This document shows positions 31,218-57,635 of a stretch of 64,000 bases of DNA, in pieces. Numbering within the stretch: the first letter of the stretch is position 1; the number at the start of each line of letters is the position of its first letter. The notes under the pieces are model-generated. The model was not told the origin of the DNA. It saw only the letters and a program-made list of their open reading frames with translations, and ran no database searches. Source of the stretch: Gautieria morchelliformis (taxonomy: Eukaryota; Basidiomycota; Agaricomycetes; Gomphales; Gomphaceae); the NCBI GenBank assembly GCA_015179125.1, contig WHVA01000325.1, positions 62,001-126,000 on the forward strand, written 5' to 3'. Both the position numbers and the translations under genes were made by a program.

Positions 31218-31477
31218 CGACTTAAGTAGGGTGTACCGCTTTGTCTCTCTGAGAAGTCAATAGATCGTGTTGGATTGTCAGGGTCACTTGGCGTAGGCTG
31301 CGGATGAGGCTAAACATTAGTTCCATCGATACCATCCCCGCCTAGGATATGCACCTCTTACTTTCATCGCCATCAACTTTATTTCGCTTAAAAGAAAGCT
31401 CTTTACAGTAAAGGCCACACTGTTCGTTCCAGCCCTCCACGTTGCGTCCGTCGACACTTGCCCGCTAGACTGCTGCA

Positions 31478-34400
31478 ATGATCGTACAACTGTCGTTAAA
31501 CACCGTATTGCTAGCAGCTGCCATAAATCCGAATCCGACAACTCCTCCTGCACAGGATGATCACGAGTGGATTACCGCGTACCTGACCATTCATCAGTTG
31601 AGCACGCCAAGCTACCTCTACACCTACCTCTTCTGGCTCGCGGTTGTGCTAGTCGTTCTCGTGTTCGCAGTGCTGCACTGGACAGGCGGAAGAGGTGGTG
31701 TTATAGGGGGTATTTGGAGTAAATGGAGCTTGAGGAGGAGGACGTGGAGAAAACAACATAGTTTGGCTGAGGCCCGTCGTCAAGGAAAACCTCACAAGCA
31801 GCCCCTGTCATTGCCTTCGAATGCTCAACTTCTCTCCCTTGCCGTTCTGTATGTCGCCACCATTCTCTTGTGTTTCCTTGGGCCGGACTATATTGCCCCA
31901 GGCACACGTCTATGGAGTTTAACAAGCAACCCGGATCCCACCCCGACCAACTCCACAACTTCTCAGCCCGACTTCACCATTCCAAAGGCTTGGTGGACGT
32001 CAGGTGGTCGGACGGGCACCCTGGCATTTGCGTTGTTTCCCTTATGTGTCCTCCTCGCACTCAAATCGCCCCCCTTTGCATTATTTGCCCTCCCATTCTT
32101 AATTCAGATCTATAACGACAAGCTTGCGTTTTTACACCGTTGGACGGGCCGTCTCATCTGGTTCGTCACTGCCCTGCACGTGGCTCTTTGGGGGGTACAA
32201 TTGAGCAGAGACAAGAGGAGCTCGGATGACCCCTCATCTGTTTGGAACTTTGCATTTGGATACGACAAGTTCGTGTTTGGCTGGATTGTGTGTTCCATAT
32301 TCTCATTTTCGTCTGCATTTTGTTGAAGTACGATCTAGGGATTCATCTCTCTAACGACGCTAACCGCATTATCCCTCCGTCCAATCCGAACCGACTTCTA
32401 CGAAGCATTTTATATCCTTCACGTGTTACTTGTGCCCCTAACCCTCGTTTTCTCGGCATTGCACTTTCCCCCAGTTGGTTGGTGGTGCTGGGCTGCGCTG
32501 GCTGTATGGGGAGCAGAACGCTTTTGGAGGCTGGTTCGATTCTTAAGAATCAATGATATTATCGGAGGGAACCATAGCGGCAGAAACAAGCGTTATGTCG
32601 CTTTAGTGGAAGAAAAGACCACGGATGGCGAACCTGTTCCCTTTGGATCTCATAACGAACACCACAGCTACGGCACCCCAGAACATGCTCGAGGCGTATA
32701 TGACACCAATTGGGGGAGAGAGTTTTTTGCCTCCCCAGAGACGGGAACGGTGGATGTTACCGATGATCGTGGGTTTGGGCCCCAAGTTATGCCGGTCCAA
32801 CCTGGACACTTAGCTGAGAGGCAAGAGACAGCCAAGTCACTTAGTCCCCGCAGCGTCGTACCTAAACCTGAGTTTCCACCCTATGGATTTGTGTCAGGGT
32901 ATCCCACTCACACACAGTTCCCTTCTCAGTCGAGAGCACCGGAACATAATGCGAAGGGATCCTATCTGCCTCCCCCAGGCTATGCCCATTGTACTCTTCT
33001 CCCGGGACGTACAATTCGACTTAAGCTTATTCCTTCTCGTCACTTTACCTGGGCTCCAGGCCAACATATTCTTCTGAACATACCTTCCGTCTCTAAATTC
33101 ACCAGTCACCCGTTCACCATCGCGTCCATATGCGATAAGGAAGCATCGTCAGATGATGGCCAAGAAGTTATAATCCTTATCCGCGCCCGACTTGGATTTA
33201 CGAAAGAGCTCTGGTCATACATAGAACGACACGAGGACTTGGGGAAGATCGGTGATACACCACCTCACTCATTCTCCCCTCCAAGAGGGGGCATCTTATT
33301 ACGGACGTATATTGACGGACCTTTCGGATCTTCCATCAGAGCCCGATGGACATCGTACTCCACTGTGCTGGTCATAGCTGGAGGGTCGGGCGTGAGTTTT
33401 GCCGTTTCTGTTCTCGAGTATGCGTGCATGTGTATGGCGGGCAGAAATGGTGCAATGCTTGGGGGGGTAGCGGGAGGTTGGAGCCAGGATGCGATTTCCC
33501 AGATCAGTCGTGTTAGGTTCGTTTGGATCATCAGGGAATTCTGTGAGCTCTTTTAGCAGGTATATGGCCCCCGTACTCACTTTCCATAGCCCACATACAG
33601 TGGGTTGCGGCAGTATTACGAAGATGCATGGCCATGGTCCCGACATCTGCATTGCAGGTGGACATTTTCGTGACAAACGTAGTATCAAGGGCTGTGCCCG
33701 CACCTTTAGAGCACCATTCACATCGGGGCGGAGGTGATACACTAGCGCCACCATCGCCTTACTTCGCGCAATCAATGAAAAGCAGACGACAGTCCAACGC
33801 GTCAGATATCAGCATGGATTCCAGCATATCATCGAGTACCTTTACTGATGCTCCGTATATGATGGCGCCTGAAAGCGAATCTGGGCATGAGATAACCGAC
33901 ATTGTGGATATGTACGGAGAGCTTGGCCATGAGGAGCATGTGCTTGACCTCACGAACTTCGACGGGGAGGACGACACTCGCCTTCCTGGTGAAAGCCAGC
34001 TATCATATAGATTAAGAAAGGAAGGTAAGGTGAGGCGGGCGAAAACAAGGCAATCCCAAAGATCTTTGTTACCCAAGTTGGATACCGGCCGTCGTACCGC
34101 TCAGGCACGGCTGTCTTCACAGCGGCAGCATAGCCATCTCAACCCCGCCTGTGAGGTTTCAGGATCTCATCCACAAGCATTTCCTGGAGACCTTGCACAG
34201 TGGTCTGAGATTCCCCCCGATTCATTTATGAATGAGCTACCCAATCCGTCGAGTCCCGGTGGTAACGTGGTGAACCCGCAGTCCTTATATCCTGACCCAG
34301 GAGATACTTCGAAGAAGTTAGACGGCAAATCGGAAGTCTCCCGCCCTCAAGATTCAGAATCAAGACAAAATGGGTATCATCCTCGAAGGTCGTCGCGGTT

Positions 34401-37473: not shown

Positions 37474-37621
37474 CGAAGCTTGCATGCAGTGTCAAATTGA
37501 GCGAAGTAACGTACTACTACCAACACTGGATAGGTTTATATAGTCTGCGACTGTTGTGGCAATGATGATGATGAAAGACGGAAGCGATAATAATAGGTCA
37601 GCGGAAAACACGGGGGACAGG

Positions 37622-40600
37622 TCACGCCGTGACGGTGACGGTGGGAAGGGTCTTTGCTGTCTTGGGTTTCGAGGCGGACGCGGGGTTCGCGGGATCCTTG
37701 GTGATCCACGGGTGGAGGAGGAGCGTGGAGGCGGAGGGGCGGAGGTTGTGGTCGAGCTCGAAGGTTTGGTTGAGAAAGTCCTCCGCATCGGCTGAAATGT
37801 CGGAGGGACACGCCGGCTTGGCGGATGAGCCAATCTGTACAGGAAGGGTAAATACATATATTATTATTGTTATTACTCTGGCCGCGCACCTTGAAGATCG
37901 CCTGCATCTGGGTCAGCTGCGCCCACGGATGCTCCCCGGTGAGCATCTCGACGACAAGACAGCCGACGCTCCAGATGTCCGCCTTGAGTGTGTACGACGT
38001 CTGCTTGACGACCTCGGGCGCCATCCAGAACACGGAGCCCTGCAGTGAGGGGCGGTGCATGCGCGCGCCGGAGAGGATGCTGTCCTCGACCTTCTTCGAG
38101 ATGCCAAAGTCCGAGATCTTGATCCCGCCCTTGTTGTCGACGAGGATGTTCCCGCCCTTGATGTCGCGGTGGATGATCTCGCGCTCGTGGAGGTAGTTCA
38201 GGCCCTGCAAGATCTGGCGCACAAAGTTGCGCACCAGCGCCTCCTCAAACGCGCCGTAGTTCTTGAGGAGCGCCGCGACGGACCCGCCGGGGACGTACTC
38301 CAGGAAGATGTTGAGATGGACGCCGTCCGACGAGGAGTCTGCGCCGTGCGTGTGTGCGTGGTCAGTGGGAAACGGGGGCGGGGACGGGAGATGGACACAC
38401 CGAGGTACTGCACAATGTTCTCGTGCTGGAGCTCCTTGAGCAGCTCGATCTCGCGCTCCAGCGCGCTGAGCATGCTCTTCTTGCGCTCCTCGTTGGGCGC
38501 GGAGCCTGTGGGGAGCTCAACCTGCTTGACGGCCATAAGCAGGCCGTGGAACGCGTCCATGCCGAGGTACACGCTGCCGAACGAGCCAGCCCCAATCAGC
38601 GCGCCCTTGATCCACTTGAACGCGCGTTTACCTGCAGAGGGGGTGAGCGGCGCGGGTTAGATCACAGGGACGGACATACCGCCATTGGACGTCACAGCCT
38701 TGTGCGCCTCTTCCTCGCCCTCGCTCGCATCGTTGACGGCCGTGTCCTCTGCCTCGTCCTCCTCCACCTCCGGTTCCTCCACGGCCGTATCCTCCTCAGT
38801 GTCCACCGCCGTGCTCGTTCCAGTGTCGCCGTCCTCCGCGCCCTCCGCGCCAGGATCGCGCCCCTCCGCCACCAGACTCGCGCGGCGACTCTCCACCTCC
38901 TGGGTGATCTCGTCCACGGTCAGCATGCTCGCCGTATCCGAGCGGTCTCGCTTGCTCCTGAGCTCCATCAAGTAGCTCACGCGGCGCGACATGCGCGACG
39001 CGTTCGAGCTCGTGCGGGCGAGCCCGCGGCCGAGGTTGCCCAGGCTCTCGGAGAGGCTCTCGGACGGGAACTGCACGGGCGGGAGGAGGTGCGGCTCGGC
39101 GGACACGGACACGTGGTCGTCGTCGTCGGTGATGTCGATCGCGGTGCCGTCCGCGGTCTCGACGGACATGCGCGGGGGCGCGTCATCGCGCTCCACGGAG
39201 AGGCCGGACGCGTTCGAGCGGATGGAGAGCGCGGCGGAGCGGGTGGAGGCTGCTGTGGAGCGGACGGACTGGGCGTCGGGTTGGGACGTGAAGGGCGGGG
39301 ACGACGTGGACTTGCGGGACGGGGAGCCGCAGCCGGTGCCCGTGCTCGCGCTGAAGCGGCTCTCGGACGGCTGATTCCAGCTTTGGCGGTCGAAGCGCTG
39401 GCTGTCAGGGCGGGGACCGGTGCTGGTATGCCCCGCGCGGAGCATCATGCTCTGGCGCTGGGTGCGCTCGAGGACGCGCTTCTCGGTAAAGGGAAAGTAC
39501 TCCTGGAGGTGGGTGGTGATAAGCTCGGAGGGCGGGCGCTGGCCGAGGAAGTTGCGCAGCTTGTTCTGGGTCTTGGCGCGGAAGGAGGGTGTGGGGGACG
39601 CGGGCTTGGAGGGGGACATGACGTCGGGGAGGGGCGGGGCGAGGGCGCGCTCGGGGTCGGGCACGCCGAGGCCGCTGAGGATGGAGATGGAGCTGGCGCG
39701 GTTCATCTGCTTGACGGTGCGTGGGTCGGGGGGCGGAGGGGCAGGGGGGGTATCGACGGGACTGGGCGTCGTGGCGCGCAGGGGTGGGGCCTCACCAAAG
39801 TAGCGGGAGAGGGCCTTGGAGCGCTTGGGCTTGCCGATGCGGCGGAGGGTGAGGCCATGCTCGCGGGCGGGATTGTCGGGCTCGGCGTGGCAGATGAAGA
39901 GGAGCTCGGACTCGCTGAGGTGTTTGCCTGGGGAGAGTGTGAGGGGAGTGACAGGATGGGCGGCGTGCTACTCACCTGGACTATCGGCAAGACCGTCGTC
40001 GAGGAAGACGCCCCAGCCGTCGACGACGAGACCCTGGTCCGGATCAGTGGAATCGAGATCATCGGGGTCCATGGAGGGAAAGCCGATTCCGCCAAACTTG
40101 CCGAACTTGCGGAGGACGGTCTCGAGGACGTCGGAACCGCGGGGTATGTCCTCGACGTTGACGACGCGGGAGTGGCCGTCGTCGGCGAGGATGAACTTGA
40201 GACATTTGCGGCGGATGTCCTCCGCGCTCATGGGTGCGCGACCGGCGGGGGTGGTGGGGCGGAAGGGCCCGCGGCCGACGGAGTAGCCGGTGGAGGGACC
40301 GGCGGTGGGAGGGGACGGGGTGGTATTTCCGGGGGGATGGTGGGCCATGAAGGACTCGGCGATGGGGGAGAGGACAGGGCCGGCATTTGGGGGCGGGTGG
40401 AGGGCGGGTGTGGAGGAGGCATACGGGTGGTGGACGGGGTTGGAAGGGGAGCGGGAGTGGGCTGCCCCGGGCTGGAGGGCGAGGGTGCGGGAGCGGGGCG
40501 GGGGGAGGGGAGAGGTGGAGCGGGCAGCGATTGCGGGGGCGGGGGTGCGGCCGCCGCCGAGGTTGCCTGGACTCGGGCCGCGGGGGAGACCGTACTCGCC

Positions 40601-41473
40601 GGTCCAAGGGGTGCCGTTAGGGGTGCCGGGGGCAGGAGGGGCGGGGGGAAGGGGGTCCTTGGTGAAGGGGGGCGGGGGCTCTAAGGGGGTCGGTGTGCGG
40701 CGGCCGGGGAGATGCTGGGGATGCTGGGACGGGTGGAGTCCCCGGACGGGGTTGGGGGCGGACGGGGTGCGAGACTGGGTGGGGGGCGCCGGGGGCTGGG
40801 CCTTTGGCGGGGGCGGGAGCGGGGGCAGGCCGCGGACGTTGCCGTTGAGGTCCTTGATAGACGAGCTGGAGAGGGTATGGGTATGGCCCTGCGGCTGGGG
40901 CAGGGGGCGCTGGCGGGCGTTTTCGCGGACGAGCTGGGGAAGGTCGCGGGACGCAGCGGGGGCGAGATGGAGGGGCGGGGGCCGGCCGTTCTCCAAGCGT
41001 CGGGGGAGGGCGCTGCGGACGGGGGACGGGGGATCTTGCGGGGGCTCGATGTGGAGGGTCATCGGGAGTCGCTGGAGGTCGCGCTGGTGCGACTTGGAGG
41101 ACCGTTGCCGGAGGCTCTTGACGGCGTTCAGGATTTTGATGCGGTCACCGACGGAGGCGATGCCCATCTCGCGGAGGGTCTGCTGGTCGAGGTCGAGGAG
41201 AATGTCCCCGCGGATGTCGTGGTTCGCGAACGACTGGGCGTGGTGCGCGCACTTGTTGTCCGCGAGCCAGCGGGCGACGTGGCCGTCATTCCACTGGCGC
41301 AGAAAGTCGAGGAAGGGCACGCCGGGCGGCGGCTCGAGGGGTATGTTCTGCAGGGGCGTCTCGGGTCGGGCTGCGCGCTGGCGGGCGGCGGGGGCGACAT
41401 TGAACGAGGGCGACGTCGGCGTCAAGCTGTGCGGCGAGCCGCTCTCGAGGAGCGTCCCTTCCATGGAGATCAT
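37622..41473 (-). CDS. STE11: STE11-type MAP kinase kinase kinase (SAM, RA and kinase domains)
   Basis: Top kinase of the fungal pheromone/filamentation MAPK cascade. ATG is at 41473. A SAM domain lies about 41,330-41,080 ([20 protein letters not shown], then [20 protein letters not shown]), and a long Pro-rich linker follows. A Ras-association-like region lies about 40,240-40,050 ([20 protein letters not shown]). An acidic Ser-rich stretch precedes the C-terminal kinase domain (38,630-37,700), which carries [20 protein letters not shown] (P-loop), VKQVEL (beta-3 Lys), [14 protein letters not shown] (HRD loop), ISDFGISKK (DFG), [11 protein letters not shown] and [20 protein letters not shown]. 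All catalytic residues are present. An intron near 37,889-37,840 leads to the final exon ending TLPTVTVTA, stop at 37622-37624. The region is very GC-rich, so long open frames on the opposite strand here are shadows. Confidence 0.93.
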
Positions 41474-44400
41474 CGCGGGCGGCGAGCACCAAGAGCGTCA
41501 AGGACGTAGGAAGCAAGAACGTAGACGACGGCGAGGGTGTCGATGACGTTGGATGACGACGAGCACGTCTCAGCCGTGCTCCGCGATCGAGGTCGGAGAT
41601 AACGGAAGCAGTCACGCTTGTCACAAACGTGACGCTGGCACAGTTGCATGTCCTGCTCCCGACCCACCAAGAAGACACCCAAGTTTTCTCCTCTGAAGTC
41701 GCGTCACTGGACAGCCTTTTAGATATGAACTCTCGCCTGTTTCCACTCTCAATGACTGCCATATCTTTCCCTCGTCGCGGGCGTCAACCCTCATTCAGCG
41801 AGCCACCCGGCCTAAGCGTTCAAAGGTTGATCCCAATTCCTCTGGCACCGCAGCTGTCGGCACTTGGTTATCATCTGATTAGAAACGCGCAATCAGTCAT
41901 GTACCTCGCTTGAACCCACGCAATCTCCAAAGGAAAGGTTCTGCCTGAGTTGGTGATCTCGATGAGCTGCATGCCATGCAACAGACCGGGGCAAGCAAAC
42001 TGGTCGTCCATGTCCGTCATCATCCACGTCGTCTGGATCTGCTATGTATCCAGCACCGTTGGCTGCCACACTCTCGGTGCCTTGTGCCACCCAAAGCCTC
42101 GGTGAATTTGCGTGAAAACGTGATCCTTGGTTGTTGCTAGCACAACTCACATAACGCACTCCACGGCCGCAGCCTTCATCCGTCTCGTGCCCTTCGTGTT
42201 TGCCTCAGTATTCCCAGCTAGTGTCGACTTTAGACGATGCCTGGGATCCAGCAACCATGTGCATGTCAGCATCGAAGTTGCAGAAGTTCCGCGCCGCTGG
42301 GAGACTACTGGACCATAGTCGTGCTCCCATACAGACACATAGCGCGTACACACATAACATGCTGACGTGTATAGAATTACCATACAGATGTGAGGTTGGA
42401 AAAAATGCTGTTCGTCGCTTGATCCCCGGTGAGTTCATCCAATCCAACATCTGGCCAATGCAGCCTGTGCAGCCTCCACCTCTATCACCAACTTCCTCGG
42501 TTGCTCAAAGCCGCATATTGCCAAGTATACCACGCTCTTCAGTATGGCGTCTTCAAGTGATTCAATCCTAGAATATCTGAACACACCCGTTCGTCAGCAA
42601 CACTCGAGTACTCACGGCCTGACGTCCAAGCAGCGCGTAGACATGAAACTTGATATTTCCTCGACCTTCAGAGGCAGCCCGAGCCAGACATAATCCATTG
42701 GATGCTTCAGACAATCTCGTCCTCGGGCAACGAGGAGCGGAAAGTCTCGAGCAGTCGGGCTCTGGAAAATCATCAGGAAGAAATCATGATATACGATTAT
42801 AGTCAACTAACTCATATGTGACCCGGCAAAATTCCTCTCCCCTGGGGATCATTTCGTCAGTAGGTGAAGTAAAACGAGCTAAGTTGAACTAGAGTCGCTC
42901 TGGCCGTCTGCTCACCGCAACATGCTATCCTACATCGACTTGTCCCCTCTATGAACAGACACACGCGCATGATGCATCACCAGATGCACAGCACCACCAG
43001 CATCAGACAGTGCTGCGCACGTCCCCGTCACTATCCCTGTCCCGCTGATCGTATCGGCCGCCTCACACCAGGGCGGAATCCCTTTGTGTAGCAACACGCC
43101 GAGGAGTGCTCGATATCTAATGTCGCTGTACGCACAGTCTGCGCTCCCTTTGGAAGCAGAGGGACATCGGCTTCATTTCGAAAGGTTTGTCTGGATGCAA
43201 ACAGTGAGGATGTGGTGACAGTATGCAGGAGCTGTATTATAGCTTAAAAGGGGCACACAGACCATGCCCTCTCTCGCCAACACATTTTATTGCTAAGTAT
43301 GTTTGTGTGTACATGTGTACCGGTGAAATGCAACGCTATATCCTACCGCACGGATGTCCAAGATCATGCAATCCTTGCTGCACTGAGTTCCGGTCCAGCA
43401 GTGGCGGGGCAGCCTCGGTGGGTTGATGAAGACAAGCCTAAGGTCGGGATGAATGGAAGCTCGACGTGTCTACTATGGGAGCGCGTATCACGAAAATGGC
43501 TGCAATGTGCATTATTCCAATGACCTGCCGGGGAACACTTTCACACTGGCTGAACAACGCTTCGAGATGTTGACGGCCATGCGACACCGGTTTGCAACGA
43601 CGGGGCTTGACAAAATCTCGGGACTTGGTTGCCTATTGCGTCCACGGCTCATACCAGCATACGACGAGACACGGCTATGGAGGCGATGCCTGAGCAGTAG
43701 CGGGGTGACTTCGGAAAATGGGGTGCAGGACTAGGAGGGGTGATAACATCCTTTTCTTACGGCGACCTCGCTAGGCGCCAGGACCCACTACACCTTTCTC
43801 TAACCCGCCCCTGCCTAAGGATTCTTAACGTGATTATGCAACGGCCACTCGATGCATCTACCAGTGTGGGTATTGGCCTGCCATAAGATAATGCGTGGCG
43901 TCAGATTCGGGGGTGAACGTAACAGTTATGGAAGGGAGGCCCGTTCAGCAGAGGCGTATAATCTCGTGATTACCACCGACGTGCTGCGTTGATTCAGGGG
44001 TGTCCCGTTATGGAAGGGTCGCCAGCTTACATAAGGATTTGTGCAACCCACATAAGTTGATCGCAACCAGGCGCCAGGCCCGTTATGCAAAGTGTGGCTG
44101 CGCCCGCGCCCGGCAATTTGCTGCGCTGTGTCGAAGCAACTTTTAAGTAGTGCTAAAACTAATGTATAACCAGATGTGGCAAGTACTTTTACAGTAACCC
44201 GGAGCCAGTCCTGCATGGTTGGAGACGCGTCCGGGTATGCAGCTGGACCGGGGCATCATCGTGCCAGCCATCGGCATCCGCATGAGTTCCTGAGATCCTA
44301 CAGTACCTTCTACTTTCGAAGCTCTTTTGAAAGTTCATACAACGCCCTTATATCCGGGACAAGATGCATTCTTACGTAAGGAGTTGATCCTTCCGGAGTC

Positions 44401-45914: not shown

Positions 45915-45922
45915 CTCCGGGC

Positions 45923-46020
45923 TACGGCTGGCCGGAAGTCCACGCTTCAATTTTCGATTTCTATAAGCTAAAACTAGACGCCATGGCACCAAAGAAGCAT
46001 CAACAACCTCTTACCGCGTT
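45923..46020 (+). repeat. Left TIR of the outer element, including the integrase start
   Basis: 98 bp, matching the reverse complement of 55190-55287 at 94 positions with no gaps. It contains the start ATG (45983) and the first codons of the integrase. Confidence 0.95.
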
Positions 46021-47663
46021 CAAGCTCAGAAAGCGCTCGTGCATCCGTGATCCATTGCGCCCGCCAATGCCCAACATCGCAGGTAAAAACCAGTATGGGG
46101 AGAAGCTCTGTGAGTAATGAAGAATGGTAGCTTTAGCCTAATCTAATATTCAACACCAACAGACCCTCCAGACAACGAGCTTCGAGCCGAATTTGACCAA
46201 TACACCCGTGAAAGTTTGCCTGCACCTGACCAGCTCGCATGACTTGAGGCAAAGTTTGGTCTTAAGATAAAGTATGTGGCATTTAGTTTTACTCAAAATT
46301 GTTATTCTGACAATGTGCAGGCGAAGTGTTCTATATCAATTGCGCAAGCGGCTTAGCAACTCGACTGTCCGCAAGAATGAACTCGATGAACTTGATATGT
46401 CACAAGCAGTGATTAATGTGAAGGAAAATGATATTATGGGCTTGTGGGGTGTTGGGCAAGTGAAACAAAGGCTAGCGGAACAAGGCATACATATATTGCG
46501 GTATGATCTCTTTTACGATCCTCATGTTATGATATTAAGAAGCTGTCCCAGCCGCGAGTGTAGGAAGATTCTCCATGACCATTTTAATGAAGAATTTGAA
46601 TACAGGTTTGCGGAAAGCCGGAAAATCAAGCGAAAGCCGCTTTTGGCAGTTGGACCGTTCCATAAGTTCCATTGGGATGGGCACGAAAAGCTTGGTGGAC
46701 AGGCACTTGGAATGGGACCAATTGGACTCCCTATCTATGGTGGAAAGGATGAGTGGTCAAGTTACCTCGTTAAGCTTGTTGTCATGCCAAGTGTTCGGCT
46801 TGCTCGTGCAATTGCGCATGTTAAACTTGACGTTATTGAAGAAATGGACTGTAAGATTGCTTTGGCTTCATTTCATTCTTGTGCACTCACAGTTTACCTA
46901 GATCGTATTGCTATTACTGATGTAACGGACATGGGAACGGAGACGGGAGAGATGCTTCATATCCAGGAGACATTATGGTTAGTAGCTCGGCTGCATCATT
47001 TATTATATATTTTGATATGTTGATACCGTTCAGGATGGATGTGGCTCCTGAATTTTCCCTTGAAAAATGGCCAAGTGGTATGCGTCTGCGTAGTGTCCAT
47101 AATACACCAATAGAAAGTTTTTGGCGGTGGAAGTGCAATGGTGAAGGCCATAGCATTCGCCACGTCCTTTCTCTTGGCTGTGACAGAGGGATATTCCACC
47201 CTAATGATGGAATTCACATGTAAGTAATTGCAGAACACAGTAAGTAATTTACTCACCTTGTAACAGCGATGTCTTCAATTGGCTTTGGCCACTGCTAGTT
47301 CAAGACCGCCTTGATCGCTTCCGTGATTACTGGAATTCACACCATATCCCTTATCAGAAGGGCAAACCGAATGCATCGGGAACATCCCCACGCAACGCAC
47401 TTCTCGTTCCAACAAGTGTGTCAACTACTGCACGTGATTGCTCAATCCACATACGTCCTGAATTGGTAGACCATTTACAAGAAGCTTATGGTGGGGATGA
47501 GGGACATGAGGCCGCTTTTCGGTTTGTTTCCTGTGAGTTTCAAGCTGAAGCCGACAACGCTTGGCTTGCTCTCAGACGGCCTAGCATCATCTTAGCTACG
47601 GCATGGGATGTGTTTACTGCGGTTGTTGATCACATTAGTACTGAACGGGCAACTAATATGTAG
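45983..47663 (+). pseudogene. Outer-element rve-type (DDE) integrase/transposase, with a nonsense codon
   Basis: Transposase of the retroviral-integrase fold. ATG 45983 lies inside the TIR (MAPKKHQQPLTAFKLRKRS). Exon 1 ends at 46109; exon 2 begins at 46163 and the join gives GKNQYGEKLYPPDNELRAEF. An in-frame TGA at 46240-46242 interrupts DQLA_LEAKFGLKIK, probably an old CGA codon changed by C-to-T. Downstream the chain is open: a helix-turn-helix-like region (VLYQLRKRLSNS), LLAVGPFHKFHWDGHEKLGG (first Asp), DVTDMGTETGEM (second Asp, near 46,918-46,955) and RSVHNTPIESFWRW (catalytic Glu, near 47,090). The C-terminal part is FNWLWPLLVQDRLDRFRDYW, ending ATNM at 47663. Small introns lie near 46,271-46,320, 46,977-47,032 and 47,220-47,267. 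All three acidic residues are present, so the nonsense codon is the only clear lesion. Confidence 0.82.
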
Positions 47664-47794
47664 AATTAAAAACAAAGTCTAATTCAGCACATGCGGAGAT
47701 AGATAAAATAGATTAGACAGAACAATCATGTTGACGGAACCTTTGTATGCATCGTCTTACATAGGGCACGGCCCCAAAAGACATAATTGGATAT

Positions 47795-47817
47795 AAAAAA
47801 AAAAAAAAAAAAAAAAA
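47795..47817 (+). repeat. A23 homopolymer between the converging outer genes
   Basis: Twenty-three consecutive A on the plus strand, between the integrase stop (47663) and the alpha-kinase stop (47865-47867). The nested element has a comparable A33 tract in the equivalent place between its two genes. Confidence 0.9.
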
Positions 47818-49684
47818 GTCTAATTCAAATATCTTGTTGCTCTATACCGGTAGCACACATTTATCTAAGTATTTTCAATAGTGGGAGGCTGGAGAAACCC
47901 CTCTCGCTGTAACTGTTCTCGGTCTCCAGGGTACTCATCAACTGCCAAACCGTGCTCCTGTGCTATCTGATCTTCATATGCGTGATCATCTACGTTCCGC
48001 TGCAGAATTGTACGTAACTCTGGAAGGCTGATTAATTTCATTGCCTTGCAAACCGTCGTACAGATATGCGATCCTAAGAAAGCATATATGCCTTTCGGGC
48101 CATGATCGCCTGCACAGGATGTTCTACAATATGAAGTTAGATATATATCACAGTAGATTGAAGTGACTCACTGGGTATATGAGTGAGACATCGGATCAAA
48201 TAGCATAAGTATTCCATCACCATCATGCTCTGTGATAGTACCTAGATCAGCCACAATTCGGTCAGTGACATACTAGTTTGAAGACAGACACTTCATACCT
48301 TGCAGATCCACAAACAAAAACTTTCCCGCTGTATTCTGAAGGACCCAATGCGCAAAAGCCATGATGCCTGCTTCCCGTTTGCCAATTGCTTCTCGGTTTG
48401 TAAGCGTACCAGTGAATTTTGTAGTAGCAGTAGAAGATCGCATTGGTTCAACGAGGTATGTCTGGTCAACTGTAGGATCGGTTTCATTTTCATAGCGAAT
48501 AATAAAGGCATCTGTGACAGTGAATACTATGCAAATGGCAGATGAAGGACAATGGCAAATAATTAGTTGTCAACATACCTTCAACTTCAGCACCGCTAGA
48601 ACGAATCTCTTCGAAAAAATCCTGAACAAATGAGGCAAGGAGCATGCATGCTACGCATGCCAACTCAAATAATAAAGCATTATAAGGTGGAGAAGTGAGA
48701 CCATGTTTGATGAATTTCTTTGCTGCGAAGATTTCATCGTTAATAGAAAGCTGTGATTAACATTAGTGTCCGTGATATAATGATAGACAGGGAGGATTTA
48801 AATGCAAACCGTAAACAATTCTTTTGACCTTCCCCTGTCTGCAGCCGCAAGAACCACTTCCTTTGAGCTTATTTTACCTTGGATTATTTCAACATGTTCG
48901 GTAATCTTCGGAAATTTGGTACGTTTATAAACTACACATGTTGTTTTTGTAAACCTGATGTCAATGTCTGCCATTGGTGGTGTGGAGAGGATACTAAGTT
49001 CAGATTCAAGAAACTCGCTCTGCAGAACTATGCGATGCTCAGTTAACATAGTTGTTAAGTAGTAAATAGGACATTACCCCGAGGTTTTTTAGAGGGCCGT
49101 TCACTGGTCATCCTTTTTCCACCGCGGGCTCCACCTGCTTGTGACTTGCTGGACCGTAAAGGCAGAGACAGAAAACCATCGGAATCCTCATTGTCAACAC
49201 TAGTCCGTGTCAAATACTATGCTAGTGTGTTAGTACACAATCAGAGCCGCAAACAAAGGCTTACTTTGTTTTCGTTCACGAAGACTTCAAGACACATGAA
49301 AGTGCCTTTAGTAAGCCGAGTAGCTTCTTTCGTAGTAGTTAAGAAGTAAGCACGATCGGCACCCTTTGCATAGGTGTCATAGAATTTCTGGATGGAGAGG
49401 AAGAGATGACTTTGTTCTTTGAATAACTTTTTGCCACGAAACTGGAGCTCGCAATCATCGCTGTAGAACCGTTATTTAACTATGTGAGTGTTAGGGGAGA
49501 CACGCACACATGAAGGTCAAACATGTGGCTGAGACGGCCTGTCCACTGGGGACTGATTTGTGCCACAGCAGCTCGGAGAACCTCTGTAAACAATTACAAA
49601 TGAGTTAAATTGTAATAAAGTTTTATGTACCTTGCATGGTCTGACTTCCTGTAAATGTTAGAGATGCGCTCCCAAGCTCTGGAC

Positions 49685-49726
49685 TACGGTGCCCGAGCAG
49701 TACCAGGTCTGTTTCAAATGGCGAAA
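49685..49726 (+). repeat. Left TIR of the nested element (42 bp, perfect)
   Basis: Identical to the reverse complement of 54471-54512 over 42 bp. Identity stops at the next base on both sides. CTGGAC immediately precedes it. Confidence 0.95.
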
Positions 49727-50105
49727 TAGAAATCAGCTGACGGAAATTGAACACAGCTTACATATCATTGTCTCGGAAGCTTAGTTGTAAGTCCGATGTC
49801 GTCTTCGCCAGCAGTCCTTCATGAAGTCTTCGTGTAATCCTTTAGTTGGTCAGTGCACTCCTGTTGCCTGAATGTTACCTAGAATCTCTTGGACTGACTC
49901 AGTACCCCTGGGAAGTTACAAACGAAGGAAGTAACATTTTTACACCGATTACGCAGCATATCCGGTGTTTCAGTGCGCCTCGCCCTCGCGGGGTTGGAAT
50001 GAATGAAAAAAATTTACAGCGAACGCCAACCAGCTAAACCGGGCTAATTACGTTAACTTTCTATCTCGACGTGTCCTCGGTGCTTATCTTCGACTACTGA
50101 ACAGA

Positions 50106-52595
50106 ATGCAATGCCATTTGTGTGGCTGCATCTTCGTCTTCTGTGATCACCCTGCAACATGTGGTAAGTGCATGAAGATTGAAGCCGCAACGCTTCCAGA
50201 GGAGAAGAACGCTATCCAGGTTAGCACCACCTCGTTAATCATATTTAGACCTGAGTATTTCTACTATGGCAGGAAACTCAACAATGCGAAGGATGCGGAG
50301 CAGTGTATCCTCGTATGCAAGGTGTCCTGTGCGGCTCTTGCAAAGTAAAAAGTAATAATCCATTTATATACCGAGTTATTCTACTGAACAATCTACAAGC
50401 TGGTGACGATGCCGGACAGGTAGGAACCCGTCCGGTCGTCAGCAGCATTATCAAGAGTGTGGCGACTCACCAGTCCGAGGCTTCGCTGCATCGACTCAAC
50501 CGACAGCCAGCTAAACAAACCTTGAATCGGGGTTTGTTGAATGCCTCACAGGCACGTGTGCGCAACCAGGCCCTCAAAGAACTTAGTCGCACCGAAACAA
50601 ATGTTTTGACAGGGACATTATGGATTTATCCTGCAAATGGGAATAAAGCTCGCGCCGTAACTATATCCTAGCCTCGTTGTCAACAGGTATTGATTCAGCA
50701 GACTCGCAGATTCAACACCCAACAGTTAGATATACGGTTACATCGGCTGTCCCTGTAGAGACCGCATTTAGAGCATTTGTAGAGTTACTTCAATCTGCTT
50801 ACATGACGCTGCCGGTCGACCCAGATGAAAAGGAAGAACATGACCGAATGACTGCAAGGATCACTTTGTTAGTAATGTTTATTTCTTCTACCCTTCCGCT
50901 CGTTCTACCCTTCTGCTCGCAATGACACAGTCAAGTACTAATGAAGTGTGCACAGGGAATATGTGACATTCGCTGTCCAGAAGGATAACAGCAGCTCATA
51001 TCAGCTCAACATCCCCAGCGGCTCTATCGGGACTCTTCACAATCGGCTCAGTCAGAGCGATGGGATCTCGAAAAAAGATGCAGCTGGAAAGTCAATCACA
51101 CTCTGGGTTTATGTGTGGGAGATTCTTCATAACGCAAAGCGGTCAAGAGAGGTACCTTAAAACCTTCACTTTCTATTCAGATGATTAAATTTCTTTTACT
51201 CTAGAGTGACGATGACTCTGGTGGATCTAACAAGGAGGATGCTTCGCCACCATCAAAACGTTCAGTTGTTGAAAATAGTTACAGGCATATTATGAATATT
51301 TCCACCCGTAGTACTAGTTTAACCTCTCAACGCTCAGTTACAGCTAGCTTGCAGCGATCTATTGCGAGCCATGTCTTAACACCACTAAAGTACACTAGCA
51401 TGTATCGGCCATCCATTGCAGGCCCGTCACTTTTACCCTCAACACCTGCAGTGCGATATGATGCCTACCCATTTGAGCGCATCAATTGGACTATTGATAA
51501 GTGGGGCACAATTTCACTTATTGAAGGGTCACCAAAGGAAACTATACTCGTTGCGAAGGATTGGCCAGAACATAAATATCAGAGTAAACCACGGGGTGGG
51601 TATTTGGGAAGGGGTGTCGAGAAGTATGCATTCAAGGTATGCTATTCTATCGTAATGATATGTCCGACGTCCATTGATTTACTGCCAGGGACAAGTTGGC
51701 GGTGCAGATGTTGCAGTATTTCAAATCAACCCAATTGCCTCGCTATTTATAATCCAAGAGGACGAGAATAATAACATGCTTCGGCAGGGATTGAAAGCCC
51801 TTGTCCTGGCTGACTATTTTATGAAAAGCTTTTATCAGCATGCCAAGCAGCTTAATTTTGATGGCCTTCCCAGTAAGTATAGAAGTATCAAACTGCGGCA
51901 AATATAGTTCACTAATGATTCCTATCAGGAATGCGAGTCAATGCTAGTGGTGCCTTCCTTGGCGTAATAAATGCAGAAAAGATTCTTCCTCATCCAGTCA
52001 CAGGGCCAGATAATCGCACACTCACACACACACTATTCCTCTCGACACCTCTTCTTTTAGGTGACTTTCGCAAATACTCAGGTTCATTACAGACAGGTTA
52101 AAGTGGTGAAACTGGGTTCGGAGCAGCAGTGGATACATTCGCACACCACGTAGTTGTTGATAGCTTGAATTCGGTCTTCCTATGCGACCTTCAAGGTAAG
52201 TATAGCACACGAAGGCCTTTTATAAGACTAAATCATGGTCTAACTAGGGTTCATAACCAACAATGAATTCATTCTCTTTGATCCTCAAGCCCGCATGTTA
52301 GTGTTCACCATTTATGTTGATTACTATGTCACGCTGAACATTTGTCTACAGAACCGCAGACACAACTACGAAGACCACATTATACGATCTATCACCTGCC
52401 GATGCAATCCAAAAGTTTCTCAGAGAGCATGTGTGTAATGCCTTCTGTAAGGGTCTACAGCTGCCGTCTACCAACCCGACACAATACGCACCTAAAAGTA
52501 TATTACCCGATAAACTGTGTAATGGCCCATTGAGACATGGTATGTTACAATTTTATCAGCGGTGTATATTGCACTCACATCCAGCTGGGCCTTAG
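50106..52595 (+). pseudogene. Nested-element alpha-kinase with N-terminal zinc ribbons; in-frame TAA in the kinase domain
   Basis: ATG 50106 opens MQCHLCGCIFVFCDHPATCG, continues CGKCMKIEAATLPEEKNAIQ and, over an intron at 50220-50271, ETQQCEGCGAVYPRMQGVLC with CGSCK. This Cys-pair layout matches the leader of the outer kinase. A middle region (SRTETNVLTGTLWIYPANG; VRYTVTSAVPVETAFRAFVE; REYVTFAVQKDNSSSYQL) and a Ser-rich linker precede the alpha-kinase core: YPFERINWTIDKWGTISLIE, GGYLGRGVEKYAFK, VAVFQINPIASLFI, GAAVDTFAHHVVVDSLN, VFLCDLQGFITNNEFILFDP and the C-terminal zinc element FLREHVCNAFCKGLQLP. A TAA at 52099-52101 falls between KYSGSLQTG and SGETGFG, so this copy is probably dead unless a tiny intron removes it. 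The stop falls at 52593-52595 with or without the last possible intron. The natural substrate is unknown. Confidence 0.8.
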
Positions 52596-52657
52596 GATGG
52601 GATTAGTGTACCTTTTACCGTTCAGTACTTCTCTCTAGCATTGTGGAAATTATTTAG

Positions 52658-52690
<33 letters not shown>
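52658..52690 (+). repeat. A33 homopolymer between the converging nested genes
   Basis: Thirty-three consecutive A on the plus strand, between the kinase stop (52595) and the integrase stop (52751). It parallels the A23 tract of the outer element, although its strand relative to the integrase is reversed. Confidence 0.9.
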
Positions 52691-52691
<1 letters not shown>

Positions 52692-52750
52692 CATTTATAA
52701 TTGTAGTCCGAAGGTGCCTGTTATGATTATCGCTGAACACAGCAGCACAA

Positions 52751-54361
52751 TCATGGATACATTATGTGGAGCATGGTTTGGAATACTAGCCATATGTTCT
52801 CTATCGTCAGCTGGGTATTCAAGGCGCTAAAGGTGTCCTGAGCATGGGCTGCGTACTCCAGATCTACAAAGCGAATGAGGTCGTCACCTCCGAGCTCATC
52901 CTTAAGCCTTCGAATGATAGCTACATCAACAGGCTGCAAGCAATTGAGACCGCCATACTCTTCAGGCATAGCAATGGCTACATTCGGTGCAACCCCTGAA
53001 GGATTTTTCTTGTGACGATCGGTACGCACAACATGGTTATTGAAGTTGTCCTTCAACACATCAAGTTCCTGTTTAATGAACATGGGCCAGAGCCATTGAA
53101 CCAGCTCACTGAACAAATAAGCACGCATTGGATAAAACTAGCAAACTACGCACTATTGGTGTGCGTTATTGCTATCATAGTTATACGACTCTGCACCCTT
53201 CCTCCATATCTCCTTGATATTATCACCCCATTGAAGGTGGACACGAAGCCACCCTCTTTCTATCGTTGTATTGTGGATACTCTTGAGGAATTGATGAGCC
53301 GAGAGCTCTGCCACCGGCAGGTCGGGCGAGAATGCCTCACTGGTAAATGTATTGATTAAGACAGATAACTATAATCTGTTTAGTGACATACCGAAGTGCA
53401 TTGGCAAAGCCGTACATCTTTGTAGTCTCCGAACCACAATCAGTGGTTGACTGAATCGGCATCCCTGTATATAGATGATTCTTGTCATTTATTCAACGAA
53501 TAACAAACATACCTCCGAGTTCCTCAACGAGACTAAGATAGAGGTACGCAATAGCCTCCCCAAGGCGATTATTTGGTACGACCCACAACCCTAGCCACTT
53601 ACCTGACCATACATCACGTAACGCCCAGATGGGAAAGCCGATTGCAGTTAGCTTGTCATGACCATCACCGCTCCATTCATAGTGAGGACCTAGGACAACG
53701 AGTGGGACCCGATGCACCTTCTTTGCTGTAGGATCTCGGTCTGAGAACCCTTCGGGATCTTGCAGGTGCATTTCCATTTCTACATAGTCTCTGGTCAAAG
53801 ATTGAGATGGTCGTCTAATATAAAGCATAAACAGAACTGACCGTGTTAAGTGAATGCCAGTTTGCCTGGAAATGTCCTCTTTGATGAGGCGTGGGCCGTG
53901 CCGTCTCGTCGGATCCTTCGCCATTTGGTCCATAACAAGCTGTCGCTTGACAACCTCTGGTATCTCATGGGTAGTAAGTTTACTTCCTTTGAGTCCCATC
54001 TTGGAACGACATCTCGCCACCGAGGTTGGACTAAAGCACGTGCATGTGCGCAGAGTCACTTCAGTAAAGTACAAGTGAATAGCGGACAAACAAACCTGAT
54101 GGTAATGTCATGTTCCACCTTGAGCAATTTGCTCAGAGTTATGCGGTTAGTTATACCACGCCGATGGTATTCTGTGAGGAAGGCTTGAAGGTGAGGGTCG
54201 TTGGCCGACGCTAGGCTCGTAGCAAATGTTATCGTGACCTACAGTTCTAAGTGGAGAAACTTACGGCAGCTTTTGTGCTGGTTTTTACCAGTGGGGTTGC
54301 GATTGTGCAAGCCTGAACTACTGTCGAGGACAGGCTCCTGGCGGTCATCCTCGTCGTACAT
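52751..54361 (-). CDS. Nested-element rve-type (DDE) integrase/transposase, apparently intact
   Basis: ATG at 54361 (MYDEDDRQEPVLDSSSGLHN, then NPTGKNQHKSC), chosen because it leads straight into the family's N-terminal motif. After a short intron comes NDPHLQAFLTEYHRRGITNR and ITLSKLLKVEHDITI (helix-turn-helix-like), then GLKGSKLTTHEIPEVVKRQL and RRHGPRLIKEDISRQTGIHL. The catalytic core has YEWSGDGHDKLTAIGFPIWA (first Asp), MPIQSTTDCGSETTKMYG (second Asp) and SIHNTTIERGWLRV (Glu). The C-terminal part has HQYELVQWLWPMFIKQELDV across an intron at about 53,143-53,100, then GVAPNVAIAMPEEYGGLNCL and ENIWLVFQTMLHIMYP. Every exon is open and each splice is GT..AG, so this is the best candidate for a working transposase here. 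Length about 430-450 aa. Confidence 0.83.
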
Positions 54362-54470
54362 CGCGTCAACAAGCACGTGATAAGGAGTACGTACAGATAT
54401 ACAGATCGAAGCCTGCCAATTGCATCCATATTGTATGACTAAAGTTACTAGTTTGCCTCTGGCGTTTACG

Positions 54471-54512
54471 TTTCGCCATTTGAAACAGACCTGGTACTGC
54501 TCGGGCACCGTA
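54471..54512 (-). repeat. Right TIR of the nested element (42 bp, perfect)
   Basis: Partner of 49685-49726. It ends CCGTA and is followed directly by CTGGAC, the second copy of the target site. Confidence 0.95.
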
Positions 54513-55189
54513 CTGGACTAAGCTTCCCTCCGATACGGATCTCGTAGATGATGGTCCACCTGGCCTTTCCAAGGCCGCTCCTAATATCGTCCAACTCTTT
54601 CTCGTTAGTAGTAGCACCAGGTTGATTTTTCTTGGGTGATAAGCTAGCGTTAAAACTGTCCTTGCGAACGCGCTTTGCCATCTGTACTGCCCGATCATCG
54701 GAAAGGGCCATTTTGTCAACGTCGACCAACCCTTCGATCTCAAGAGCTAAATAACATGTTGCGCTGAACTATGTGCAATGAACAAAGAATTAATGGCTTA
54801 CTTTTGGCCTTACAAGTACCGCAGGGGCTTGTAACATGCGTTCCATAGATGCCGCAGTCCTTACACTGTGTCAAATTCTATTCTAGCTAGTAAGCAGACG
54901 TGTGGTGAACTGTGAACCACAAACCATAATACGCTCCTTGTCCATGTCAGACATCGGTGCTTGAAGCACGACACATTTCTTGCACAGGAGATTTTTTTTC
55001 AAGCTTCTCCGGAATGTCGTCTGACAGCCATCGTGCTCGTTATCGTGCCCGCCACATGGAGTGACGTTGTCAGTGTGGAGGCCATGGTCTGGCATGGGAG
55101 ATACTAGTAAGACAAGGGAAATATACCATGCTTTATACTCAGTGCCAACGACCATGACGCATACTCTGCGCGGTCCGTGCACTAGATGA

Positions 55190-55287
55190 AACGCGGTAAG
55201 AGTTTGTTGATGCTTCTTTGGTGCCATGGCGTCTAGTTTTAGCTTGTGGAAATCGAAAATTGAAGTGTGGACTTCCGGCCAGCCGTA
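55190..55287 (-). repeat. Right TIR of the outer element, including the alpha-kinase start
   Basis: Partner of 45923-46020. Its ATG lies at 55227-55225, exactly the same distance (60 bp) from the element end as the left one. It is followed by the direct repeat CTCCGGGC at 55288-55295. Confidence 0.95.
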
Positions 55288-55295
55288 CTCCGGGC

Positions 55296-55674: not shown

Positions 55675-56950
55675 GCCTACGGTGCACATGCCCCGTCTCC
55701 CAACTCCAAGCACACTACCGTGCACACGCACCGTCCCAGCAGCCTCCATGTACGGTGCACACGCGCCGTACCCGGTGTCCACGTACGGTGCACACGCACT
55801 GAAACCACCTCACAGTACGGTGCACACGCGCCGTCCCCGGCCTCCACGTACGGTGCATGCGCACTGAAACCACCTCGCAGGACGGTGCACGCGCACTAAA
55901 GCCACCTCGCAGTACGGTGCACACGCACCGTCCTGGGCAGCCTCCACGTACGGTGCACGCGCACTGAAACCACCTCGCAGGACGGTCCACGCGCACTAAA
56001 GCCACCTCGCAGTACGGTGCACACGCACTGAAGCCGCCTCGCAGTACGGTGCACACGCGCCATACCCGGTGTCCACGTACGGTGCACACGCACTGAAACC
56101 ACCTCGCAGTACGGTGCACATGCGCCGTCCCCGACCTCCACGTACGGTGCACGCGCACTGAAACCACCTCGCAGTACGGTGCACACGCACTAAAGCCACC
56201 TCGCAGTACGGTGCACACGCACCGTCCCGGGCAGCCTCCACGTACGGTGCACACGCGCCGTACCCGGTGTCCACGTACGGTGCACACGCACTAAAGCCAC
56301 CTCGCAGTACGGTGCACACGCACTGAAGCCGCCTCGCAGTACGGTGCACACGCGCCGTCCCCGGCCTCCACGTATGGTGCACACGCACTGAAACCACGCA
56401 GGACGGTGCACGCGCACTAAAGCCACCTCACAGTACGGTGCACACGCACCATCCCGGGCAGCCTCCACGTACGGTGCACACGCACCATCCCCGGCCTCCA
56501 CATACGGTGCACACGCACTAAAGCCACCTTGCAGTACGGTGCACACGCACTGAAGCCGCCTCGCAGTACGGTGCACACGCGCCGTACCCGGTGTCCACAT
56601 ACGGTGCACACGCACTGAAACCACCTCGCAGTACGGTGCACACGCGCCGTCCCCGACCTCCACGTACGGTGCACGCGCACTGAAACCACCTCGCAGTACG
56701 GTGCACACGCACTAAAGCCACCTCGCAGTACGGTGCACACGCACCGTCCCGGGCAGCCTCCACGTACGGTGCACACGCACTGAAGCCGCCTCGCAGTACG
56801 GTGCACACGCGCCGTACCCGGAGTCCACGTACGGTGCACACGCACTGAAGCCACCTCGCAGTACCATGCACACGTGCCGTACCCGGTGTCCACATACGGT
56901 GCACCCGCACTGAAGCCGCCTCGCAGTAGTCCACCCCCTCCAGTGCACAT
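55675..56950. repeat. GC-rich minisatellite with TACGGTGCAC core and higher-order structure
   Basis: About 1.28 kb in which the core TACGGTGCACACGC (or GCACGCGC) recurs roughly every 27-37 bases, more than 35 times. Spacers between cores come in a few types: ACTGAAACCACCTCGCAG, ACTAAAGCCACCTCGCAG, ACTGAAGCCGCCTCGCAG, CGTACCCGGTGTCCACG, CGTCCCCGGCCTCCACG and CGTCCCGGGCAGCCTCCACG. The order of spacer types is itself repeated: about 56,051-56,250 matches about 56,573-56,770, an offset of about 522 bp. All minus frames remain open because the units lack stops, which explains long reading frames (MCTVLRGGFSACAPY and similar) that I do not regard as genes. Confidence 0.93.
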
Positions 56951-57635
56951 GCACCGTATCTAGAACCAAAGTGGCGTCCCCAGGGGTTCCTCCTCATCTG
57001 AGAGAGCGCGGAAAGGGCGGCGCTTGGGCAGACCAGTTCGGACCAGCCACGGATCCCGCCCCCTCCTGCTGCGCGAGGCGGAAGGGGGCAGCTAACGGAC
57101 GTGAGGTCATTACCGAGGGGATGCCTCCTAAGGCGGGCATGCTCGTGCTCATTGGATTGATGCGCCGTGGGGGTACATCCTTGTGGTCTGGCCCCTGAGG
57201 GATTTGACATATCCATCAAGAATCACGAATTAGTGAGTCCCCTTGGGTCTTACGGTCCTTGAATAAACTTGTCATACCGTTGACCGTACCAAAGACGGAG
57301 TGGAAGGCAAACATGCGACGCGTGTCGCTGAGTGATCACGTGACACGGTGGGGACACCCGCATTGACTTGTGCATGTCCGACGGGGCCGCCCCAGTTGTT
57401 CAGCCACGGGCCTTGTCCGCACGCACGTCAGGGCCTTGATGACACTGGTCCACAAAGACCAGATGCCAACCCAAGTAATAGGTTTGTATCCCTCGCGACC
57501 AGGATCATATCGCGAGGGATATCTGGTCCCAGCAGATGGGCGGCATATGCTATTGTGGGAGATGTATGTATGTCTCTTCAGTTGAATAATAAGTTGTTAC
57601 ATGACACGCTGACTACTTGATCTATGTAGGTCTCT
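56951..57635. other. Intergenic stretch right of the minisatellite
   Basis: No gene supported. Short open frames occur, without motifs. An inverted pair around 57,489-57,519 (CCTCGCGA...TCGCGAGG) can form a short hairpin. Confidence 0.4.

What the first reader, a model, noticed from the sequence alone, without database searches (positions are those of the whole stretch)
45915..55295. Transposon lineage pairing a DDE integrase with an alpha-kinase, seen twice in one locus
Two separate TIR-bounded units, the outer at 45923-55287 and the nested at 49685-54512, each contain exactly two recognisable genes: an rve-type integrase and an alpha-kinase with N-terminal Cys-pair ribbons. The genes converge in both. 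The two integrases are only distantly similar, so the pairing appears older than the split between the elements and is unlikely to be chance capture. A kinase kept as a resident transposon gene could regulate the integrase by phosphorylation, modify host targets, or act as a selfish or defence component. It could also help explain alpha-kinase expansion in mushroom genomes. Known: each protein family. Seen: TIRs, direct repeats, gene order. Inferred: functional partnership.
Basis: partly seen in the sequence, partly recalled or inferred. Interest (0 to 1): 0.93.

Follow-up and report, generated by a model that had tools for sequence, protein, structure and literature searches.

The report
Fungal transposons carrying integrase plus alpha-kinase
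Two nested jumping genes in a false-truffle genome each pair their own integrase with an alpha-kinase-like gene; the pairing is old and recurs across many relatives, it was already noted briefly for one named transposon group, and one branch seems to have lost the kinase's usual ATP-binding residues.

Summary
Outer element 45923-55287 has 98-bp TIRs and an 8-bp duplication. Inner element 49685-54512 has 42-bp TIRs and a 6-bp duplication, and sits inside the outer kinase gene. Each has a DDE integrase and an alpha-kinase, tail to tail. The genome is Gautieria morchelliformis. In its 122 Mb, 53 of 73 kinase loci have an integrase of this clade within 12 kb, 45 of them convergent; about 1 is expected by chance. 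Other rva_4 integrase places show 0 of 64. Kinase and integrase distances co-vary (Mantel r 0.76, 9 families). So the pairing is resident and older than the split.

It is not new as such. Termini TAYGG..CCRTA, 6-bp duplications and an alpha-kinase opposite to the transposase are reported for IS3EU transposons (Kojima 2025). The inner element fits IS3EU; the outer is IS3EU-like, with 7-8-bp duplications.

Two points that my paper searches did not bring up: (1) the inner clade lacks the ATP-site Lys and Glu in 13 of 13 loci (five families) yet mostly keeps both Asp and the zinc motif, so it looks like a conserved pseudokinase, while the outer clade keeps them; (2) a separate alpha-kinase family sits tail to tail with a KDZ-associated (CxC6) gene at 9 of 10 loci. 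Function is inferred, not shown.

The parts
45923..55287 (.). outer IS3EU-like transposon, flanked by CTCCGGGC direct repeats (45915-45922 and 55288-55295)
45923..46020 (+). outer left TIR; contains an ATG at 45983
55190..55287 (-). outer right TIR; contains an ATG at 55227 that opens nearly the same peptide, MAPKKHQQ[P/T]LTAF; start codons not proven
45983..47663 (+). outer DDE integrase gene (approximate exons), one early in-frame stop; triad motifs WDGHEKL, TDMGTE, HNTPIE
47865..55227 (-). outer alpha-kinase gene with N-terminal Cys-pair ribbons, interrupted by the inner element; FAAKKF, LVEPM, VDLQG, LFDPM, HICTTVC present
   Evidence: domain scored in copy L009
49685..54512 (.). inner IS3EU-type transposon, flanked by CTGGAC direct repeats (49679-49684 and 54513-54518)
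49685..49726 (+). inner left TIR, 42 bp
54471..54512 (-). inner right TIR, 42 bp
50106..52594 (+). inner alpha-kinase-like gene (ten approximate exons), two Cys-pair ribbons, one in-frame stop; lacks ATP-site Lys and Glu, keeps CDLQG, LFDPQ, HVCNAFC
52751..54361 (-). inner DDE integrase gene (relative of rva_4/PF24764 proteins); triad motifs DGHDKL, TDCGSE, HNTTIE

Best explanation
Both units are cut-and-paste DNA transposons of the IS3EU kind (outer: IS3EU-like) with two resident genes. Shown: TIRs, target-site duplications, tail-to-tail gene order, recurrence of the pair across the genome, co-divergence, and constraint on both genes over deep splits. Inferred: the integrase binds the TIRs through its N-terminal helical, HTH-like domains and moves the element; the zinc-ribbon alpha-kinase-like protein is a dedicated accessory factor that works in trans with the integrase or on the host chromatin and silencing machinery it meets. 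In the outer clade it probably phosphorylates a partner. In the inner clade, which lost the ATP-anchoring Lys and the adenine-contact Glu but mostly kept the rest, it more probably acts by binding (pseudokinase) than by phosphorylation.
For: TIRs, duplications and empty sites. Kinase-integrase pairing 53 of 73, 45 convergent, chance 1.05; control rva_4 integrase places 0 of 64. Of two-ended elements over 4 kb, 8 of 8 outer-family and 3 of 4 inner-family hold both genes. Mantel r 0.76 (9 families) and 0.90 (18 loci), p 0.0001 each; shared deep tree splits. Between families the kinase has dN about 0.5-0.6 with saturated dS. Catalytic residues: outer clade Glu 8 of 8 loci, Lys 6 of 8 (2 not read); inner clade neither, 13 of 13 loci in five families; Glu faces Thr against 4kuj. 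Integrase-like model.
Against: No expression, binding or transposition data. 20 of 73 kinase loci have no such integrase within 12 kb, and 20 of 73 integrase loci are not the nearest partner of any kinase. Eight paired loci are not convergent. 14 of 25 inner-TIR and 11 of 22 outer-TIR loci show no kinase. Some recent pairs give omega 0.6-1.07, not clearly below 1. The trees conflict at one inner-clade node and inside the outer family. Residue roles are recalled, the Lys column rests on an ungapped comparison made by eye, and L010 and L014 have a stray LVEPL about 30 residues before the aligned site.
Confidence: 0.6

Rival explanations
1. Passenger capture: the kinase is a host gene picked up by chance and carried without a role.
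For: 20 of 73 integrase loci are not paired with a kinase; recent copy pairs show weak constraint, e.g. L024/L028 omega 0.85, not significant; the window copies are broken.
Against: Co-divergence, mostly convergent order (45 of 53), constraint over deep splits and in L010/L014 (omega 0.28, p 7e-5), presence in 22 of 27 gene-bearing TIR loci.
Confidence: 0.15
2. Anti-silencing effector: the kinase acts on host chromatin or silencing proteins, not on the integrase, as proposed for transposon-borne TET/JBP dioxygenases.
For: Kojima 2025 proposes this for TET/JBP genes, which lie between transposase and alpha-kinase in TET+ IS3EU. An alpha-kinase family also sits beside KDZ-associated genes, as expected for a tool useful to unrelated transposons.
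Against: No target known; the inner clade lacks the ATP-site residues; no Tet_JBP match in this genome, although that search had no positive control.
Confidence: 0.3
3. The transposons merely insert next to host alpha-kinase genes, or the association is an artefact of clustering.
For: Both gene families are multicopy in this genome.
Against: Both genes lie inside the same TIR pair, with target duplications, in independent copies; chance expectation 1.05 against 53.
Confidence: 0.02

Closest known systems
IS3EU DNA transposon superfamily (Repbase; Kojima 2023 PMC10045372, Kojima 2025 PMC12730594; passages read)
   Same: TA..TA ends of the form TAYGG..CCRTA, TIRs over 30 bp, 6-bp duplication (inner), DDE integrase, alpha-kinase gene opposite to the transposase
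   Different: Outer family makes 7-8-bp duplications; no TET/JBP gene seen between the two genes; host is a false truffle, whereas the TET+ alpha-kinase families I read about are in rusts and Tuber; Repbase sequences could not be compared
KDZ (Kyakuja-Dileera-Zisupton) transposons
   Same: A separate alpha-kinase family lies tail to tail with a CxC6 gene (PF18721, associated with KDZ transposases) at 9 of 10 loci
   Different: The window elements themselves have an integrase, not CxC6; ends of the CxC6-kinase units were not determined
Styx of Zymoseptoria (PMC10853768; passages read)
   Same: Fungal multi-gene element with 36-bp TIR and a 6-bp duplication setting; its authors link its transposase to IS3EU
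   Different: Four coding sequences, two of them found only in Zymoseptoria; no alpha-kinase mentioned in the passages I read
Alpha-kinases (PF02816: ALPK1, TRPM7, MHCK A, eEF2K)
   Same: Domain scores above the curated cut-off; DLQG, DPQ/DPM and HxCxxxC motifs
   Different: Inner clade lacks the ATP-site Lys and Glu; N-terminal Cys-pair ribbons added

Membership tests
IS3EU | Termini TAYGG..CCRTA (TA..TA) | tested here: met
   TACGG..CCGTA on both window elements; the outer-clade relative L012 has TAGAG..CTCTA instead
IS3EU | TIRs longer than 30 bp | tested here: met
   98 and 42 bp
IS3EU | TSD usually 6 bp: inner element | tested here: met
   CTGGAC; relative L028 CCCAGG; L014, L023 and L032 gave only 5 bp
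IS3EU | TSD usually 6 bp: outer element | tested here: not met
   8 bp in the window, 7 bp in L009, L021, L030 and L012; hence called IS3EU-like only
IS3EU | IS3/IS481-type DDE transposase | tested here: inconclusive
   DDE motifs and integrase-like model of homologue P0013 with low TM-scores, best PDB hits Tn7/TnsB, foamy virus integrase, IstA; kinship to IS3/IS481 in particular was not tested
IS3EU | Transposase clusters with Repbase IS3EU in a tree | not testable with these tools
   Repbase is not held
IS3EU with alpha-kinase | Alpha-kinase gene in opposite orientation to the transposase | tested here: met
   compared with the text of PMC12730594 section 4.1
Active alpha-kinase | ATP-site Lys, Glu and two Asp: outer clade | tested here: met
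   Glu 8 of 8, Lys 6 of 8 loci (L021, L025 not read), VDLQG and LFDPM/LFDPQ where read
Active alpha-kinase | ATP-site Lys and Glu: inner clade | tested here: not met
   13 of 13 loci (five families) lack both; Phe/Leu for Lys, Thr/Ala/Val/Gly for Glu; activity itself not testable here
KDZ (L020/L026 only) | KDZ-associated CxC cluster next to the kinase | tested here: met
   PF18721 E 7e-21; 9 of 10 loci
KDZ (L020/L026 only) | KDZ transposase catalytic core and element ends | not tested
   Only CxC6 was matched; termini not determined

The most novel reading that the evidence does not exclude
An alpha-kinase fold with zinc ribbons is a module traded between unrelated fungal transposons (IS3EU-type and KDZ-associated), usually set tail to tail with the transposase, and in one IS3EU branch it has become a conserved pseudokinase that serves as a non-catalytic subunit or regulator of transposition.
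Probability: 0.35. Interest if true: 0.8.

Novelty: new variant of a known kind. Interest (0 to 1): 0.58.

Why it matters
Alpha-kinase expansion is reported in rust genomes, and one member was listed among genes under diversifying selection (PMC4469406, PMC5295586, PMC4150398), with no transposon link in the passages I read. If many such genes are transposon genes, those counts partly measure transposon load. A kinase-like protein kept by transposons for so long, in one branch without its ATP-site residues, gives a concrete system for asking how transposons regulate themselves or escape silencing.

Tried and rejected
Single-sequence structure prediction of kinase P0125 gave pLDDT 31 and was discarded. 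The first splice models over-ran the genes and were replaced; exon borders stay approximate. Host-gene proximity and coincidence were rejected (see rivals). TET/JBP: no match in the genome, but the search had no positive control. A string search for the empty site found nothing because the site differs by a base; one search shows it by alignment. Protein searches for the kinase found hits only in Gautieria (4 and 3 hits); that search needs shared exact words, so nothing follows for distribution. The shared TIR-encoded start peptide holds in the outer-family copies but not in L012, so no general claim is made. In one search, 9 of 20 loci gave no duplication of 5 bp or more, some being cut or one-ended, and in L022 and L024 the hits were not at TACGG ends. 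Array-ended element L033 holds neither gene.
Full report
Observation. The outer runs 45923-55287 between 98-bp TIRs (96%) and CTCCGGGC repeats; the inner runs 49685-54512 between 42-bp perfect TIRs and CTGGAC repeats. Seven other outer copies (C145, C179, C200, C493, C622, C898, C1004) run unbroken through the insertion point with the 6-mer once, as CCGGAC in six and CCAGAC in one, so the inner element jumped into the outer kinase gene.

Genes. Outer integrase and inner kinase are on +, outer kinase and inner integrase on -, tail to tail in each unit. Alpha-kinase domains pass the PF02816 cut-off of 21.3 bits: outer 67.8 (read in L009), inner 49.6. The integrases carry D, D, E motifs in both window copies. 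The inner one has 150 homologues at E 0.001 or better, 120 listed, many named from Agaricomycetes, part of them labelled PF24764. An alignment of 48 of these 120, headed by P0013, gave a model with pLDDT 83.8: N-terminal helical, HTH-like domains and a core whose best PDB matches are a Tn7 transpososome chain, foamy virus integrase and IstA (E 1.8e-5 to 7e-5; TM-scores by query length 0.35 or lower, so the fold match is partial). The window copies are damaged: an early stop in the outer integrase, the insertion in the outer kinase, and one stop in the inner kinase.

Genome-wide pairing. Merging PF02816 hits and inner-kinase hits gave 73 kinase loci; merging both integrase searches gave 73 integrase loci. 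Of 73 kinase loci, 53 have such an integrase within 12 kb: 45 convergent, 5 divergent, 3 tandem; 20 have none. 20 of the 73 integrase loci are not the nearest partner of any kinase. Random placement predicts 1.05. Of 64 other rva_4 integrase places (merged by eye from the 152 matches, itself scoring 150 of 565 candidates; a few are still fragments of one gene), 0 have a kinase of this list within 12 kb. Some kinases without a partner are explained: L010 keeps an integrase remnant, L011 is a truncated inner copy, three (C162, C208, C547) belong to the CxC6 group below. The rest are not.

TIR families. Outer TIR: 33 places make 22 loci: 9 with both genes, 2 kinase only, 2 integrase only, 9 neither. 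Inner TIR (up to 3 mismatches): 29 places make 25 loci: 7 both, 4 kinase only, 3 integrase only, 11 neither (gene fragments count; one-ended loci were looked at for 9 kb). Among loci with either gene, 11 of 13 and 11 of 14 have the kinase, and two-ended elements over 4 kb hold both genes in 8 of 8 and 3 of 4; the gene-less outer loci are three short elements (0.6-1.7 kb) and six single ends.

Age. Peptide pieces from 19 elements were aligned; one (L010) gave no usable integrase piece, leaving 18. Kinase and integrase distances correlate, r 0.90 for 18 and 0.76 for one per family (9), p 0.0001 each. FastTree topologies share 10 of 15 splits for 18 and 6 of 8 for 11. Shared in both: outer versus inner clade, window outer with L012, L018 with L022, L024 with L028, L014 with L016 and L027. 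Conflicts: in the 11-element trees the kinase groups the window inner element with L023, L024 and L028 (0.92) while the integrase groups L024 and L028 with L014, L016 and L027 (0.85); and inside the outer family the two trees disagree with high support (0.995 against 1.0), where the kinase rows visibly mix reading frames at introns, so that part is not reliable. The kinase pieces of L018 and L022 are only 66 and 88 residues.

Selection. Inner-family kinase copies: omega 0.29-1.07 on few changes. Other pairs: kinase 0.28 to 0.85, integrase 0.15 to 0.75; between families dS is saturated while kinase dN is about 0.5-0.6 and inner-clade integrase dN about 0.2. I read this as constraint on both genes over long times, with the kinase evolving faster. 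Outer-family values may be inflated because some tblastn pieces read through introns.

Catalytic residues. Roles are recalled knowledge of alpha-kinases. Outer clade: Glu (L[VI]EP) in 8 of 8 loci, Lys (AAK[KT]F) in 6 of 8 (not read in L021 and L025), and VDLQG, LFDPM or LFDPQ, and HxCxxxC in most. Inner clade: in 13 of 13 loci, five families, the Lys position is Phe or Leu and the Glu position Thr, Ala, Val or Gly. The Glu column is set by alignment with 4kuj, where Glu-Pro faces Thr-Pro, the Lys column by an ungapped 21-residue match made by eye. DLQG/DIQG, FDPQ and HxCxxxC remain in most. L010 and L014 carry a stray LVEPL about 30 residues before the aligned Glu site. This looks like a pseudokinase, but unusual nucleotide use cannot be excluded.

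A second carrier. In L020 the alpha-kinase (PF02816, 27.9 bits) lies tail to tail with a gene bearing CxC6, a cluster associated with KDZ transposases (E 7e-21; L026 CxC6 E 2e-20). Ten loci of this kinase were found and 9 have CxC6 about 3 kb away, all convergent (26 of the 85 CxC6 places, chosen by eye for shared contigs, were given to the script). Its ends were not defined.

What is known. Kojima 2025 (abstract, passages and section 4.1 read) describes IS3EU in rusts with 6-bp duplications, TIRs over 30 bp ending TAYGG..CCRTA, and says all TET+ IS3EU families have a TET/JBP gene between transposase and alpha-kinase, which lie in opposite orientation. Kojima 2023 (passages) gives TA..TA ends and TSDs usually 6 bp. 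A meeting report (passages) records Kapitonov's multi-gene fungal transposons derived from En/Spm and IS3EU. Styx is linked to IS3EU (passages). Rust alpha-kinase expansions are noted without a transposon link in the passages read. Searches listed no other paper that I recognised as joining alpha-kinases with IS3EU or KDZ elements; most were seen as listings only. Of the six papers I looked into three. Repbase entries and subscription papers, including the original KDZ paper, could not be checked.

Verdict. The inner element fits IS3EU in every feature tested except those left inconclusive or untestable; the outer is IS3EU-like with 7-8-bp duplications. The pair is resident and old. The mechanism, an accessory factor for transposition or against silencing, is the best guess, with catalysis likely in one clade and unlikely in the other.

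Noticed in passing
window 55678-56958: Minisatellite of 32/33-bp units starting GTACGGTGCACACG: 33 copies of TACGGTGCA against 0.53 expected, sharing the first eight bases of the inner TIR; the 17-mer GTACGGTGCACACGCAC occurs 119 times in the genome (part listed), in arrays that form inverted pairs about 6-11 kb apart on C169, C185, C207, C337, like fold-back elements. One such unit, L033, holds neither gene.
   Followed up: partly
L022 4457-4970 and 7332-7826: Similar TACGGTGC arrays lie on both sides of the divergent-orientation kinase of C194.
   Followed up: no
window 47795-47817 and 52658-52690: In both elements a run of A (23 and 33) lies in the short gap between the two convergent gene ends.
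   Followed up: no
L020 582-1496: An insertion of about 0.9 kb with perfect 44-bp inverted ends inside the CxC6-kinase unit, absent from L026.
   Followed up: no
L026 2-391: NB-ARC-like fragment (PF00931, E 0.0056, under cut-off) near the CxC6-kinase unit.
   Followed up: no
window 18138-21739, 31469-33556, 37536-41497: Long host-like frames that look like Spt6, a ferric reductase and a MAP kinase kinase kinase; names are recalled from reading, not from a family search.
   Followed up: no
L018 and L022: A third integrase-kinase family in tandem (L018) and divergent (L022) order, so orientation is not fixed in every lineage.
   Followed up: partly
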